64,000 nucleotides of DNA from Winogradskyella sp. J14-2 (lineage in GTDB: Bacteria; Bacteroidota; Bacteroidia; Flavobacteriales; Flavobacteriaceae). The notes beneath the pieces are model-generated. The model was not told where the DNA came from, did no database searches, and saw nothing but the letters and a program-made list of their open reading frames with translations. Both the position numbers and the translations under genes were made by a program. Below are positions 7,402-58,972 of this stretch, piece after piece; within the stretch, counting starts at the first letter, position 1; the number at the start of each line of letters is the position of its first letter. The DNA lies in contig NZ_CP019388.1 in NCBI RefSeq assembly GCF_001971725.1, positions 744,001 to 808,000 on the forward strand, in the 5' to 3' direction.

Positions 7402-8289
7402 ATGAAAAATATAGCAGTTATAGGAGCAGGAACAATGGGAAACGGAATTGCCCACACCTTTGCTCAATCAGGATTTAAAGTAAACCTTATAGATATTAGT
7501 GAAGCGTCTCTAGAACGCGGCTTGGCTACAATTTCTAAGAATTTAGACAGAATGGTAGCTAAAGAAAAAATCACTGAAAATGATAAAGTAGAAACCTTAG
7601 GAAACATTACGACCTATACAAACACGGTTGATGGTGTTAAAAACACTGATCTTGTCGTTGAAGCAGCTACAGAAAATGTAGATTTAAAACTAAAGATTTT
7701 TAATCAGCTAGACGACGCTTGTGATGACGCTACAATTTTGGCTACAAACACATCTTCAATCTCAATAACACAAATTGCAGCTGCAACATCGCGCCCTGAA
7801 AAAGTGATTGGTATGCATTTTATGAATCCTGTGCCAATCATGAAATTGGTAGAGATTATTCGTGGATACAATACTAGCGACGATGTTACTAATACCATTA
7901 TGGAGTTATCTAAAACGCTCGGTAAAGTACCAACTGAGGTTAATGATTATCCTGGTTTTGTAGCCAATCGTATTTTAATGCCAATGATTAACGAGTCTAT
8001 CGAGACTTTATATAACGGTGTTGCTGGTGTTCAAGAAATTGATACCGTAATGAAACTAGGTATGGCACATCCAATGGGACCATTACAATTAGCAGATTTT
8101 ATTGGTTTGGATGTATGCCTTTCTATCTTAAATGTAATGTATGACGGCTTTAAAAACCCTAAGTATGCACCTTGCCCTTTGCTTGTTAACATGGTACAAG
8201 CTGGTAAATTGGGAGTGAAATCTGGAGAAGGTTTCTACGATTATTCAGAAAGCAGAAAAGCAGAAAACGTATCTAAGCAGTTTTTATAG
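7402..8289 (+). CDS. 3-hydroxyacyl-CoA (3-hydroxybutyryl-CoA) dehydrogenase
   Basis: The 295-residue enzyme oxidises L-3-hydroxyacyl-CoA to 3-oxoacyl-CoA with NAD(P), in beta-oxidation or butanoate metabolism. IAVIGAGTMGNGIAH at the N terminus is the dinucleotide-binding loop; MHFMNPVPIMKLVEII (about 136-151) and VNDYPGFVANRILMP (about 179-193) are family signatures, and the histidine in HFMNP is the catalytic base in homologs. Length is that of the short, single-function form. An ATG at 7384 would add six residues but lies inside the terminal repeat of the MITE-like element, so 7402 is preferred. The stop codon touches the first heptad of the following repeat array. Confidence 0.92.
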   Translation: MKNIAVIGAGTMGNGIAHTFAQSGFKVNLIDISEASLERGLATISKNLDRMVAKEKITENDKVETLGNITTYTNTVDGVKNTDLVVEAATENVDLKLKIFNQLDDACDDATILATNTSSISITQIAAATSRPEKVIGMHFMNPVPIMKLVEIIRGYNTSDDVTNTIMELSKTLGKVPTEVNDYPGFVANRILMPMINESIETLYNGVAGVQEIDTVMKLGMAHPMGPLQLADFIGLDVCLSILNVMYDGFKNPKYAPCPLLVNMVQAGKLGVKSGEGFYDYSESRKAENVSKQFL

Positions 8290-8316
8290 TATGAAGTACA
8301 AAGTGTAAAGTATGAA
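8289..8316 (+). repeat. Heptad array, left of S23/IVP gene (4 x GTNNNAA)
   Basis: Four contiguous 7-base units, GTATGAA GTACAAA GTGTAAA GTATGAA, begin at the last base of the preceding stop codon. The ATG start of the four-helix-bundle gene (8312) lies inside the fourth unit. Confidence 0.8.
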
Positions 8317-8686
8317 AGTTCAGGATTTAATAGCTTATCGAAAGGGTTTTAAACTAGCGATGGATATTTATGAAATTTCAAAATCTTTTCCTAAAGAAGA
8401 AACTTATTCACTTACAGATCAAATAAGGCGTTCTTCAAGAAGTATTTGTGCCAATTTATCTGAAGCTTATCGCAAAAGACGATACCCTAAACACTTTATC
8501 AGCAAGCTTACCGACTGTGATGCCGAAAATGGAGAAACTCAAACTTGGTTAGAGTTTGCAGCTGCTTGCAAATACATTTCTTTAGAACAATTCGAGTTAT
8601 TAAACGAAGAATCTTTAGAAGTTGCTAAACTGTTAAATTATATGATACTTAACCCTGAAAAATTTGGTTCAAAAAAAGGATACTAA
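8312..8686 (+). CDS. Four-helix-bundle protein, S23/23S rRNA-IVP family
   Basis: This 124-residue protein matches the small four-helix-bundle family first noticed in intervening sequences of 23S rRNA (also related in fold to the Avd protein of diversity-generating retroelements). Family marks are the N-terminal YRKGFKLAMDIYEISKSFP, then TYSLTDQIRRSSRSICANLSEAY, then KLTDCDAENGETQTWLEFA. It is basic and likely cytoplasmic; a nucleic-acid role is inferred only. It sits as a self-contained unit between a metabolic gene and DUF1015, framed by inverted heptad arrays, and its start codon lies in a repeat unit, so it looks inserted rather than native to the operon. Confidence 0.88.
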   Translation: MKVQDLIAYRKGFKLAMDIYEISKSFPKEETYSLTDQIRRSSRSICANLSEAYRKRRYPKHFISKLTDCDAENGETQTWLEFAAACKYISLEQFELLNEESLEVAKLLNYMILNPEKFGSKKGY

Positions 8687-8693
8687 AAATATA

Positions 8694-8707
8694 GTAATAA
8701 GTATCTT
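8694..8707 (+). repeat. Two forward heptads after the S23/IVP stop
   Basis: GTAATAA GTATCTT follow the stop codon in the same orientation as the left array. GTAATAAGTA (8694-8703) is perfectly complementary to TACTTATTAC (8730-8739) in the right array, giving a possible 10-bp stem. Confidence 0.6.
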
Positions 8708-8711
8708 AAAT

Positions 8712-8753
8712 TTGTTACTTCATACTAATTACTTATTACTTTACACTTTAAAC
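8712..8753 (-). repeat. Heptad array, right of S23/IVP gene (6 x TTNNNAC or TANNNAC)
   Basis: Six contiguous units TTGTTAC TTCATAC TAATTAC TTATTAC TTTACAC TTTAAAC are the complement of GTNNNAA-type units, so this array is inverted with respect to the one at 8289. The words AAAGTGTAAAGTA and GTATGAAGTA occur in both arrays as exact complements. Confidence 0.8.
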
Positions 8754-8759
8754 TAAAGC

Positions 8760-9998
8760 ATGGCTAAAATAATTCCATTTAAGGCGGTTAAACCAACCAG
8801 AGCCATTGTTGGTCTTGTAGCAGCACGCCCTTATCAAAGTTATACTTTAGATGAACGTGAATCTAGAATGGGATACAATCCGTACAGCTTTCTCCATATT
8901 GTTAATCCAGGATACAAATACGACCAAGAAGTCACTGGAGAAGAGCGTTACCGACTGGTAAAAAGCCGTTACGAAGAATTTAAGGAAGATGGCATTTTTG
9001 TTACCGAAAACAAACCGTCATTATATGTCTATAAAATTGTAAACAGACATGGACAGGAATTTAACGGTATCATTGCCGCAACAAGCGCTGAAGATTACGA
9101 AAAAGATGTTATAAAAAAACACGAGGATACTATTGCAAAACGCGAACAAACGTTTAAAACCTATCTGCAAACGGTAGGTTTTAATGCAGAGCCTGTGCTA
9201 CTCACCTATCCTGATAATGCCATTGTATCAGACATTATAAAAGAAACTCAAAAAGGCTATGCTGAATTTGAGTTTACTATGACCTATAGAGACACACACT
9301 ATTTGTGGAAAATAGATAATGATGAGACCATTAATAAAATTCAAAATGAATTTAAAAAAATGGAAACCATTTACATAGCAGATGGTCACCACAGATCGGC
9401 TTCATCATATCTGTTGTATAAAGATGAAAAAGAGAAAAACCCAAACCACAACGGTTCTGAATCTTACAACTTTTTTATGTCGTATTTAATCCCAGAATCT
9501 GATTTAGTGATTCAAGAATTTAACCGATTGGTAAAAGATTTAAACGGATTAACAAAAGAAGAATTTTTAATAAAACTAGATGCACTTTATAGAATTGAAA
9601 ATAGAGGTTTAACACCATACAGTCCTTCTAAACCACATCATTTTAGCATGTATTTAGATGGAGAATTCTATTCACTTTATTTAAGAAAGACGAATTATAA
9701 TTTTGAAACTGCGCTCGATAAACTTGATGCTCAACTCTTGTACAGCACAATTTTAGACCCTATACTTAGTATTAAAGATTTGAGAAACGATAATAGGATT
9801 GAATACGTACACGGCAAACACGAAATGATAACCATTAAAAGTAGTGTGGATAGTGGAAAGTTTAAAGTTGGTTTTGGCATGTGCCCTGCAACTGTGAAAC
9901 AAATGAAAGAAATTGCAGACGAAGGCCTTACAATGCCTCCAAAAAGCACTTATATTTTACCAAAATTAAGAAGCGGAATTACGATTTATGAGTATTAA
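8760..9998 (+). CDS. DUF1015-family protein
   Basis: The 412-residue protein belongs to DUF1015 (SpoIIIAH-unrelated, widely conserved in anaerobes and Bacteroidota). Recognisable parts are the N-terminal PFKAVKPTRAIVGLVAARPY, the conserved IADGHHRSASSYLLYK (about residues 205-220) with a histidine pair, and a late GMCPATVKQMKEIADEGLTMPPKSTY. The histidine motif suggests an enzyme but no reaction is established; a link to serine or amino-acid metabolism has been proposed for relatives. The ATG overlaps the edge of the right heptad array. Its end overlaps the next gene by 11 bases, so the two are surely co-transcribed. Confidence 0.85.
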   Translation: MAKIIPFKAVKPTRAIVGLVAARPYQSYTLDERESRMGYNPYSFLHIVNPGYKYDQEVTGEERYRLVKSRYEEFKEDGIFVTENKPSLYVYKIVNRHGQEFNGIIAATSAEDYEKDVIKKHEDTIAKREQTFKTYLQTVGFNAEPVLLTYPDNAIVSDIIKETQKGYAEFEFTMTYRDTHYLWKIDNDETINKIQNEFKKMETIYIADGHHRSASSYLLYKDEKEKNPNHNGSESYNFFMSYLIPESDLVIQEFNRLVKDLNGLTKEEFLIKLDALYRIENRGLTPYSPSKPHHFSMYLDGEFYSLYLRKTNYNFETALDKLDAQLLYSTILDPILSIKDLRNDNRIEYVHGKHEMITIKSSVDSGKFKVGFGMCPATVKQMKEIADEGLTMPPKSTYILPKLRSGITIYEY

Positions 9999-10647
9999 AG
10001 ACAACCTTCAAAACATAAAATCTAGCATACCAGAACATGTTACTCTAGTTGCGGTTTCTAAAACCAAACCTGTTAGTGATTTAATGGAAGCTTATGATGC
10101 TGGTCAACGAATTTTTGGCGAAAACAAAATTCAGGAAATGGCTGAAAAGTATGAACAAATGCCAAAAGATGTACAATGGCATATGATTGGCCATGTACAA
10201 CGTAACAAAGTGAAATACATGGCTGAGTTTGTCAGCTTAATTCACGGTATTGACAGCTTTAAACTTCTAAAAGAAATTAATAAACAGGCTAAAAAGTACG
10301 ATAGAGTCATCGACTGTTTGCTTCAAATAAAAATTGCTGATGAGGATAGTAAATTCGGCATGTCTGCAAATGATGCTACTACCCTTTTATATTCAGATGA
10401 ATTTTCAGAATTAAAAAACATTAAAATTGTTGGTCTCATGGGAATGGCAACATTTACAGATAATATGACACAAGTAGAAAACGAATTTAGATTTCTAAAA
10501 ACTACTTTTGACCAGCTTAAAACTCAGAACTCAAAACTCAAAATTTTAAGTATGGGCATGAGTGGCGATTATAAACTGGCAATAGAATGTGGCAGTACTA
10601 TGATACGCGTAGGAAGTAGTATCTTTGGCGCAAGAAATTATCAGTAA
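9988..10647 (+). CDS. YggS/PLPBP-family pyridoxal phosphate homeostasis protein
   Basis: The 219-residue protein is a single-domain alanine-racemase-fold protein that binds pyridoxal 5'-phosphate and keeps free PLP in balance. LVAVSKTKP near residue 21-29 holds the PLP lysine; GENKIQEM (near 45) and WHMIGHVQRNKVKY (near 63) are family signatures, as is the terminal STMIRVGSSIFGARNY. The start overlaps the end of the DUF1015 gene. The stop codon lies within the first unit of a heptad array, so the repeats begin exactly at the end of the coding region. Confidence 0.92.
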   Translation: MSIKDNLQNIKSSIPEHVTLVAVSKTKPVSDLMEAYDAGQRIFGENKIQEMAEKYEQMPKDVQWHMIGHVQRNKVKYMAEFVSLIHGIDSFKLLKEINKQAKKYDRVIDCLLQIKIADEDSKFGMSANDATTLLYSDEFSELKNIKIVGLMGMATFTDNMTQVENEFRFLKTTFDQLKTQNSKLKILSMGMSGDYKLAIECGSTMIRVGSSIFGARNYQ

Positions 10648-10669
10648 ACAGTAAACAGTAGACAGTAGA
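10642..10669 (+). repeat. Heptad array (4 x CAGTARA)
   Basis: Four 7-base units, CAGTAAA CAGTAAA CAGTAGA CAGTAGA, start inside the last codons of the YggS gene (its TAA is 10645-10647). In register they read GTARACA, the same GT-phase as the other heptads in the window. Confidence 0.75.
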
Positions 10670-10674
10670 CAAAG

Positions 10675-10744
10675 CTTACACTTTTAACTTTTAACTTTTA
10701 ACTTTTAACTTTTAACTTTTAACTTTTAACTTTTAACTTTTAAC
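10675..10744 (-). repeat. Perfect heptad array (CTTACAC plus 9 x TTTTAAC)
   Basis: Nine identical TTTTAAC units (10682-10744) follow one variant unit (10675-10681). On the minus strand these read GTTAAAA, inverted relative to the array at 10642 just upstream. The array ends two bases before the apparent first codon of the exonuclease gene (10747), so it occupies the place where promoter and ribosome-binding site would be expected. Every unit has a TAA, so no frame can be translated through it. Confidence 0.9.
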
Positions 10745-58863: not shown

Positions 58864-58928
58864 TTATCGCCTAACGGCCTACAAATAAACAACTACACGA
58901 TTAAACGATTAAATATCGAGCAAAAAAC

Positions 58929-58963
58929 TTTTCACTTTCTACTTTCTACTTTTAACTTTTTAA
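58929..58963 (-). repeat. Heptad tract upstream of rplS (TTTNNAC units)
   Basis: TTTTCAC TTTCTAC TTTCTAC TTTTAAC plus a degraded fifth unit TTTTTAA. On the minus strand these read GTTAAAA, GTAGAAA, GTAGAAA, GTGAAAA, the same heptad type as at 8289 and 10675. The tract ends two bases before the rplS -7 element. Confidence 0.7.
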
Positions 58964-58964
58964 T

Positions 58965-58972
58965 TATCTTTG
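58965..58972 (+). promoter_or_regulatory. -7 element of rplS
   Basis: TATCTTTG is an exact TAnnTTTG, 74 bases before the rplS ATG at 59046. Heptad repeats fill the place where a -33 element would be. Confidence 0.55.

What the first reader, a model, noticed from the sequence alone, without database searches (positions are those of the whole stretch)
8289..8760. Four-helix-bundle gene framed by inverted heptad arrays
The S23/IVP-like gene lies between four forward units (GTATGAA GTACAAA GTGTAAA GTATGAA, 8289-8316) and six reverse-complement units (TTGTTAC to TTTAAAC, 8712-8753), with two more forward units after its stop. All follow the pattern GTNNNAA in uninterrupted seven-base register. The stop codon of hbd touches the first unit, the ATG of the four-helix-bundle gene lies inside the fourth, and the DUF1015 start abuts the last, so the unit fills the gap exactly. 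The words AAAGTGTAAAGTA and GTATGAAGTA recur as exact complements. This looks like a compact insertion with its own ends, unlike any insertion sequence I know. I infer that the small basic protein may act on or be carried by the repeats.
Basis: partly seen in the sequence, partly recalled or inferred. Interest (0 to 1): 0.78.

Follow-up and report, generated by a model that had tools for sequence, protein, structure and literature searches.

The report
Passenger gene wrapped in repeat hairpin
Between two genes read in the same direction sits a small gene bracketed by matching inverted seven-base repeats, an arrangement that recurs around many of its relatives in several bacterial phyla and once inside a ribosomal RNA gene, and that likely folds the passenger gene out of the message so that its neighbours keep working.

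Summary
The gene 8312-8686 (PF05635, S23/IVP) lies between four GTNNNAA units and six reverse-complement units (nine of ten fit). Among 137 S23 genes of the window's phylum, left flank and reverse-complemented right flank match (16.96 against 10.63 swapped); 337 control genes hardly differ (11.46 against 11.29). Where both arrays are clear, periods agree at 7, 8 or 9 in 53 of 61 loci. Units are locus-private, yet both sides change together in diverged same-site pairs. S23 genes lie in sense between co-directional genes at 128 of 136 loci (control 126 of 233); empty sites can be 1-12 bp. The architecture recurs in Bacillota and Cyanobacteriota, and around an S23 gene inside a 23S rRNA gene, where the heptad stem replaces a hairpin tip. 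I read it as a messenger version of the rRNA intervening sequence: the arms would pair and loop the cistron out. Against: no G-U wobble excess, weak fold for this window, about half of the loci without a clear match. RNase III cutting and action of the protein on the repeats are untested.

The parts
7402..8289 (+). upstream neighbour, 3-hydroxyacyl-CoA dehydrogenase (hbd); its stop codon TAG (8287-8289) abuts the left array
   Evidence: PF02737 and PF00725; sequence
8289..8316 (+). left array: four forward units GTATGAA GTACAAA GTGTAAA GTATGAA
   Evidence: sequence; lag-7 score of the left spacer reached by 18 of 5000 shuffles
8312..8686 (+). S23/IVP four-helix-bundle gene, 124 aa
   Evidence: PF05635 E 1.1e-31, TIGR02436; dN/dS 0.07-0.11 against five of six same-site relatives, the sixth saturated
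8694..8707 (+). one further forward unit GTAATAA and a degenerate one (GTATCTT) after the S23 stop
   Evidence: sequence; the second does not fit GTNNNAA
8712..8753 (-). right array: six units in inverted orientation (read on the minus strand GTTTAAA GTGTAAA GTAATAA GTAATTA GTATGAA GTAACAA)
   Evidence: sequence; lag-7 score of the right spacer reached by 0 of 5000 shuffles, inverted match with the left spacer by 37 of 5000
8760..9998 (+). downstream neighbour, DUF1015 gene; its ATG lies six bases after the right array
   Evidence: PF06245 E 4.6e-92

Best explanation
This is a four-helix-bundle (S23/IVP) gene enclosed by inverted, locus-specific heptad arrays, and it most likely works as a messenger-RNA version of the 23S rRNA intervening sequence: the two arrays would pair in the transcript and loop the passenger cistron out between its neighbours. 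Shown by sequence: the two arrays match each other in inverted orientation, share their period where both are clear, flank S23 genes lying in sense inside co-directional gene runs, and, in the loci that could be scored, begin and end close to the neighbours' stop and start codons. Shown at one rRNA site: the same kind of inverted heptads replaces the hairpin tip of a 23S rRNA helix and encloses an S23 gene. Inferred: pairing in the cell, the benefit (upstream stop and downstream start brought within about 14 nt, close to the uninterrupted spacing), cutting of the stem by RNase III as published for rRNA intervening sequences, movement of gene plus arrays as one unit, and growth and matching of the arrays by slippage and arm-to-arm copying. 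The S23 protein probably serves the element, for instance by binding the seven-base register as a pentamer, but nothing here shows this.
For: Inverted left-right match: 137 S23 genes, 16.96 own, 10.63 swapped, 11.28 in direct orientation; maximum of 2000 permutation means 11.49. 50 independent site groups: 12.72 against 7.27, maximum of 5000 permutation means 8.70; own pair beats at least 95% of swaps in 26 of 50. Control genes: 337, 11.46 against 11.29 (sd 0.11); 189 co-directional, 11.34 against 11.12 (sd 0.16). Periods: of 61 loci strong on both sides, 40 are 7/7, 12 are 8/8, one 9/9, one 6/6, seven disagree. Sense orientation: 128 of 136 against 126 of 233 control triplets; 26 of 31 in the set. 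The matched stem leaves a median of 4 nt after the upstream stop and 7 nt before the next start in the 84 of 137 loci that could be scored. Arms change together at one site: own above cross in 69 of 71 pairs at protein identity 0.3-0.5, 36 of 42 at 0.5-0.7, 73 of 101 at 0.7-0.8. Empty junctions of 1-12 bp. Other phyla. rRNA case: S23 gene inside RF02541, heptads GACNGAN on both sides, a 16-nt hairpin tip of the same strain's empty copy replaced, fold z -10. RNA duplex of left and right spacers, 50 sites: mean -21.6 against -11.8 kcal/mol swapped. S23 under purifying selection.
Against: No sign of selection at RNA level: left-right differences compatible with G-U pairs number 231 against 253 of the A-C type in the 107 of 146 loci that reached the cut-off (160 against 183 and 99 against 93 at stricter cut-offs; swap ratio 0.93; first set 193 against 192 in 93 of 137), and the antisense transcript would pair as well (-22.4 against -21.6). 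By duplex energy only 13 of 50 sites beat 95% of swaps. About half of the loci show no clear match (65 of 137 and 23 of 50 representatives do not pass the cut-off). Same-site pairs of 0.8-0.9 protein identity show no own-over-cross excess (35 against 35 of 81). The window's own fold is not better than shuffles (z -0.9, 17 of 100), although its minimum-energy structure closes with the two arrays. One cyanobacterial locus (L293) has G-rich repeats on both sides in the same, not inverted, orientation. Heptad arrays also occur without S23 genes (13 intergenic lag-7/8 arrays in 464 kb, one of them the window's own). For a rRNA intervening sequence the S23 protein is reported as probably not made (PMC4990558).
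Confidence: 0.62

Rival explanations
1. DNA-level mobile element: the inverted arrays are the ends at which a recombination or ssDNA intermediate of the S23 element is cut and joined, and the arms match because they are copied from one another at DNA level; an RNA stem is incidental.
For: No strand-specific wobble signature; sense and antisense duplexes equally stable; presence and absence at the same sites; S23 genes of 0.6-0.7 identity at different sites have more similar arrays (15.46, 97 pairs; 13.85 for 13 pairs at 0.7-0.8) than the baseline of 10.4-10.7 below 0.5, as if gene and arrays moved together; relics L055 and L307.
Against: No transposase or recombinase in the unit; unit sequence is private to the locus, unlike transposon ends; insertions in sense almost only (128 of 136); no target duplication in the rRNA case, a 16-nt hairpin is replaced. 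Similarity at 0.6-0.7 identity could also be older shared ancestry.
Confidence: 0.2
2. Protein-RNA autoregulation: the S23 pentamer wraps the AG-bearing arm of its own transcript, one seven-base unit per subunit, somewhat as TRAP binds spaced triplets, and so controls its own or the operon's translation.
For: Both PDB relatives found were solved with five chains (2gsc, 2rld) and the Xanthomonas protein is a homopentamer (stated in PMC4990558); AG is a conserved core on the inward strand of 104 of 200 arrays against CT in 13; S23 conserved by selection.
Against: Explains one arm only, not why the other matches it in inverted orientation; units differ widely between loci and between same-site relatives. 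The TRAP comparison is recalled, not tested.
Confidence: 0.1
3. Plain microsatellite slippage: seven-base repeats are common in these genomes, and S23 genes merely sit in spacers that collect them.
For: Heptads are the commonest class of longer simple repeats in most genomes (Mrazek 2007, as cited in PMC4679880) and occur without S23 here.
Against: Left and right arrays match each other in inverted orientation (direct orientation 11.28 is near the swapped level), share the period and change together; control genes in the same genus show next to no such match.
Confidence: 0.05
4. Reverse-transcriptase (Avd-like) or telomerase-like addition of heptads to both ends of a linear intermediate.
For: S23 is related to the retroelement protein Avd (bAvd PF22296 just over its cut-off; NF033474 below its cut-off); the same unit on both 3' ends would give inverted arrays.
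Against: The own genome has 10 S23 genes and no PF00078 hit; 9 of 31 genus genomes have one, and G014, G017 and G018 with 16, 15 and 11 S23 hits have none.
Confidence: 0.02

Closest known systems
23S rRNA intervening sequence (IVS) with an S23p ORF, e.g. Coxiella burnetii helix 45 (Warrier 2016, PMC4990558; abstract, sections 3, 16, 19 and passages read)
   Same: S23 ORF in sense, enclosed by terminal inverted repeats (28-bp stem there); heptameric repeats (GACAGAT) just upstream of the ORF, copy number varying between strains; sporadic presence. The Azospirillum case found here (L299) has GACNGAN heptads on both sides.
   Different: Sits between protein genes of a messenger, not in rRNA; arrays on both sides, locus-private and matched to each other. 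What I read of the paper reports the heptads as a strain variation upstream of the ORF; RNase III cutting is shown there, not here. Its S23 ORF looks decaying; the window's is under purifying selection.
GGGAATC heptamers of Xanthomonas and Nostoc (Rehm 2015, PMC4692102; abstract and passages seen)
   Same: Heptads between aligned ORFs; 70 convergent inverted pairs in X. campestris; G-rich strand sense after stops, antisense before starts: the same polarity as here.
   Different: One G-quadruplex unit type per genome; no link to S23 genes made ('four helix', '23S', 'XCC0516' have no hit in the main text); the window units lack G-tracts.
TAACTGA heptamers in Beggiatoaceae, Cyanobacteria and five Bacteroidetes (MacGregor 2015, PMC4679880; abstract, sections 3, 9, 12 and passages seen)
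   Same: Intergenic heptads, in one genome mostly ending close to start codons; in Bacteroidetes other heptamers mixed in and shorter junctions without repeats in relatives.
   Different: Treated as direct repeats, with one inverted repeat noted; no S23 gene noted ('S23', 'four helix', 'IVP' no hit).
IVP genes inside cas operons (PMC3936711, passages seen)
   Same: An S23 gene between cmr3 and cmr2; Anabaena sp. 90 here has one between cas6 and cas4 with inverted heptads (L298).
   Different: The paper lists it among functions associated with CRISPR-Cas; the operon-insertion habit offers another reading.
Diversity-generating retroelement protein Avd
   Same: Related protein family (bAvd PF22296; NCBI Avd model below its cut-off).
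   Different: No PF00078 reverse transcriptase in the genome.

Membership tests
23S rRNA intervening sequence with S23 ORF | encodes an S23/IVP protein | tested here: met
   PF05635, E 1.1e-31
23S rRNA intervening sequence with S23 ORF | ORF in sense, enclosed by terminal inverted repeats able to pair | tested here: met
   Sequence; shuffles 37 of 5000; family-wide; the window's fold as a whole is not better than shuffles
23S rRNA intervening sequence with S23 ORF | lies inside an rRNA gene | tested here: not met
   Between hbd and DUF1015. Met by the relative L299
23S rRNA intervening sequence with S23 ORF | excised from the transcript by RNase III without religation | not testable with these tools
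   Published for rRNA cases (PMC4990558)
23S rRNA intervening sequence with S23 ORF | sporadic: empty and occupied copies of one site | tested here: met
   rRNA copies of one strain
Insertion sequence or other DNA transposon | encodes a transposase | tested here: not met
   Only ORF of 50 aa or more in the unit is S23
Insertion sequence or other DNA transposon | target-site duplication | tested here: inconclusive
   rRNA case: none, 16 nt replaced; protein-gene sites compared only between species
Diversity-generating retroelement (Avd) | reverse transcriptase with template and variable repeats | tested here: not met
   0 PF00078 hits in the own genome; template and variable repeats not sought
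G-quadruplex heptamer repeats (GGGNATC) | G-tract in every unit | tested here: not met
   Units GTNNNAA

The most novel reading that the evidence does not exclude
S23/IVP genes mark a pan-bacterial class of 'cistron-in-a-stem' elements that colonise operons as well as rRNA; the textbook 23S rRNA intervening sequence is only its rRNA branch. Each element carries its own private seven- or eight-base alphabet, written in mirror image on both arms and re-matched as it drifts, the S23 pentamer reads the seven-base register rather than a sequence, and solo heptamer arrays (GGGAATC, TAACTGA and the like) are its footprints.
Probability: 0.3. Interest if true: 0.9.

Novelty: new variant of a known kind. 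Interest (0 to 1): 0.8.

Why it matters
PF05635 is a widespread family whose function is reported as unknown (PMC4990558): 116 of 148 genomes sampled from the window's phylum have it. If its genes are looped-out passengers of operons, this would explain their odd gene neighbourhoods (fatty-acid, tryptophan and cas operons among those seen), give the rRNA intervening sequences, described in 1990 as cited in PMC4990558, a general context, offer a source for unexplained heptamer repeats, and set a clear test of how an operon tolerates a foreign cistron. Inverted arms that change sequence together also give a natural system for asking how two distant repeats are kept alike.

Tried and rejected
RNA-level wobble signature: sought twice, not found. 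Sense against antisense duplex stability: no difference in favour of sense (sense better in 21 of 50, antisense in 29). Reverse-transcriptase dependence: no PF00078 in the own genome. rRNA among the other S23 loci: blastn with three 23S stretches of L299 against the other loci then held gave nothing. Link between protein similarity and array similarity at different sites: weak over all pairs (Spearman 0.09 and 0.05), raised above 0.6 identity. No structure prediction, protein database search (search for homologous proteins) or viral scan was run.

Rows dropped and limits: 144 HMM hits in 138 of 157 loci became 137 distinct genes after removing short domain hits, identical genes and flanks under 100 bases; 136 of 137 had both neighbours; 84 of 137 were scorable for stem position; one search used 79 gene records from the 80 loci (one locus twice); one search used 31 genes from 30 loci (one locus twice), several the same as and at least one (L264, also L147) the same as in the 137; one search used 146 after removing identical genes and ambiguous bases, of which 107 reached the score cut-off. 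The 60 extra genus loci were picked by hand from the list, largely from the top down and leaving out some short or broken ones, and searches give the best matches first, so none of these sets is a random sample. Control genes and control triplets come from the window and 20 stretches of five genus genomes only. Taxon labels follow the record titles; Ignavibacteriae, Fodinibius and Balneolaceae may belong to the window's phylum in GTDB (the Balneolaceae genome gives the same hits as G104, 'same phylum'), and a few MAG contigs may be misplaced. Twelve of 39 plasmid records with a hit were read.
Full report
What is in the window. The 124-aa gene at 8312-8686 is PF05635 (23S_rRNA_IVP) and TIGR02436. 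It fills the spacer between hbd (PF02737/PF00725) and a DUF1015 gene (PF06245). Four forward heptads (8289-8316) follow the hbd stop and six inverted heptads (8712-8753) precede the DUF1015 start. Nine of the ten fit GTNNNAA. Against dinucleotide shuffles the inverted match is reached by 37 of 5000, lag-7 periodicity by 18 (left) and 0 (right) of 5000.

The genus. The own genome has ten PF05635 hits; 27 of 31 genus genomes have at least one. By eye several of the ten show arrays of period 7 or 8 on both sides, each locus with its own unit. At the hbd-DUF1015 junction of 30 genomes I count 11 with S23 and arrays, 8 with another gene of about 0.6 kb, 6 short junctions (3, 3, 9, 12, 21, 37 bp) and 5 others (63-240 bp). 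Of these five, L045 has inverted heptads without a gene and L055 keeps only an S23 tail. The units differ between species (AAAGTGT, CAGTGGT, GTGTCTA, AGTGTGG) but left and right are related. In two close relatives (L040, L041) the left spacer is seven bases longer and the right one seven shorter than in the window.

Statistics. For 137 distinct S23 genes of the window's phylum (31 genus and 148 phylum genomes searched, the own genome in both; loci of the best hits, the hbd loci and 60 hand-picked ones; Bacteroidota by the names of the nearest named relatives) I compared the left flank with the reverse complement of the right flank. Own pairs score 16.96, swapped pairs 10.63, direct orientation 11.28. 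Reduced to 50 site groups: 12.72 against 7.27, 26 of 50 beating at least 95% of swaps where 2.5 are expected. Control genes: 337, 11.46 against 11.29 (sd 0.11), 14 over their own 95th percentile of swaps; 189 co-directional ones, 11.34 against 11.12 (sd 0.16), 4 over; S23, 72 of 137 over (the cut-off is 16 in each set). Lag-7 score of at least 12: 21 left and 26 right of 137, against 1 and 2 of 57 window control ORFs; lags 8, 9 and 14 are also raised, the other lags tried not. Where both sides are strong (61 loci) the period is 7/7 in 40, 8/8 in 12, 9/9 and 6/6 in one each, and differs in seven. The conserved core on the strand running into the gene holds AG in 104 of 200 arrays and CT in 13, so both arms share one polarity.

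Turnover in step. For same-site pairs, own left-right match exceeds the cross match in 69 of 71 at 0.3-0.5 protein identity, 36 of 42 at 0.5-0.7, 73 of 101 at 0.7-0.8 (27 the other way), 35 against 35 of 81 at 0.8-0.9 and 12 against 4 of 27 at 0.9-0.98. The pairs are not independent, and at low identity the genes may be separate insertions into one site. S23 itself is conserved: dN/dS 0.07-0.11 against five same-site relatives, three of them with dS above 1, a sixth saturated.

Position. S23 genes lie in sense between co-directional genes in 128 of 136 loci; control triplets 126 of 233. In 84 of 137 scorable loci the matched stem starts a median of 4 nt after the upstream stop and ends 7 nt before the next start, close to the short empty junctions. 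A second site, between a GATase class-I gene and a glycosyl-transferase-3 gene (trpG and trpD by inference), is seen occupied in 2 of 30 listed genomes, empty with 1-7 bp in 7, and holds a relic (left array plus 13 codons) in one; most of the rest have longer spacers with other repeats or another insertion.

Other phyla. A genome-contig scan gave 80 loci; 79 gene records score 18.34 against 11.30. By record title 11 of 16 outside Bacteroidetes beat 95% of swaps, and 27 of 63 inside; leaving out the Ignavibacteriae, Fodinibius, Balneolaceae and unnamed records, 8 of 12 do (counted from the rows). Thirty loci from the genomes of twelve such loci: 21.42 against 10.60, 22 of 31 genes; among the 20 genes of Bacillota, Gracilibacteria and a Lambdaproteobacterium 14 do (counted from its rows). 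Twelve plasmid records, ten of them cyanobacterial: 24.4 against 14.8 with 250-nt flanks, clearly above their swaps in nine; not in L292 (units shared with its neighbours in the set), L293 (G-rich repeats on both sides but not inverted) or L299, whose left array my choice of start codon had cut off. In Anabaena sp. 90 the gene lies between cas6 and cas4.

The rRNA link. L299 (Azospirillum lipoferum 4B, plasmid AZO_p2) has its S23 gene inside a 23S rRNA gene (RF02541). Left units GACGGAT GACAGAG GACGGAG GACAGAA and right units, inverted, GACGGAT GACAGAA GACAGAG GACGGAT enclose it. Another rRNA copy of the same strain (L300) and one of a second strain (L301) are empty; there the place holds a 16- or 15-nt hairpin that the insert replaces, with identical flanks. 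The stretch folds with z -10 and closes with the heptads. Its helix number (45 by position) was not checked against E. coli numbering. Warrier 2016 (PMC4990558; abstract, sections 3, 16, 19 and passages read) reports heptameric GACAGAT repeats upstream of the S23 ORF of one rRNA intervening sequence, a 28-bp terminal stem and RNase III cleavage in it. So the architecture is part-known for one rRNA case.

Reading. The simplest single account is that these elements are intervening sequences of messengers as well as of rRNA: inverted arms let the transcript loop the passenger out. Tandem repeats would make the stem tolerant of unit gains and losses. Mean RNA duplex energies fit (own -21.6, swapped -11.8 kcal/mol, sd 0.77), though only 13 of 50 sites beat 95% of swaps by this measure. 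The contrary results must be stated plainly: differences between arms show no G-U bias (231 against 253), and antisense pairing is as good. The matching of the arms may therefore be kept by DNA copying, with or without an RNA role. The window's own RNA does not fold better than shuffles (z -0.9); one hand-picked same-site relative, L058, does (z -6.7).

Print. Searches listed no paper that, by title, abstract start or the passages I opened, links S23 genes of protein operons with inverted heptads; only the held open-access library was searched, and most listed papers were not opened. Mrazek's survey was seen only as cited in PMC4679880; Lin 2006 only as cited in PMC4990558 and PMC3936711.

Noticed in passing
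window 10642-10744: S23-less facing heptad arrays between a YggS-like gene and an exonuclease-like gene (names by recall): CAGTAAA/CAGTAGA x4, then ACTTTTA x9.
   Followed up: partly
window 58881-58965: Degenerate period-8 and period-7 arrays (ACTTTCT-like) between a trmD-like and a ribosomal-protein-L19-like gene (names by recall), without an S23 gene.
   Followed up: partly
L310, L312, L313, L316, L318-L320, L322, L328: At the trpG-trpD junction of other species lies a spacer of 273-514 bp, in those looked at with a shared stretch near TTCGTTT-GCA-CAAGGCAAA-TGAAC and no listed PF05635 gene; some have long GAAGTGA or TTAGCAG heptad arrays in front. Unknown element.
   Followed up: partly
L042, L043, L048, L049, L060, L062, L064, L066: The hbd-DUF1015 junction of eight other genus genomes holds what looks like one gene of about 0.6 kb with an HLHLEIR or HLHFEIR stretch (M23-peptidase-like by recall); in L060 it follows six AAAGTGT units.
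   Followed up: no
L002, L003 (own genome): Two S23 genes about 1.3 kb apart, near a long 3-hydroxyacyl-CoA dehydrogenase-like frame, each with its own unit; same-site copies of L002 exist in other genera.
   Followed up: partly
L270, L277, L278 (Bacillota): The inverted match continues beyond the heptads into other stretches (such as GGGCGGGACACCCGCACCCG in L270), perhaps another repeat family nested at the ends.
   Followed up: no
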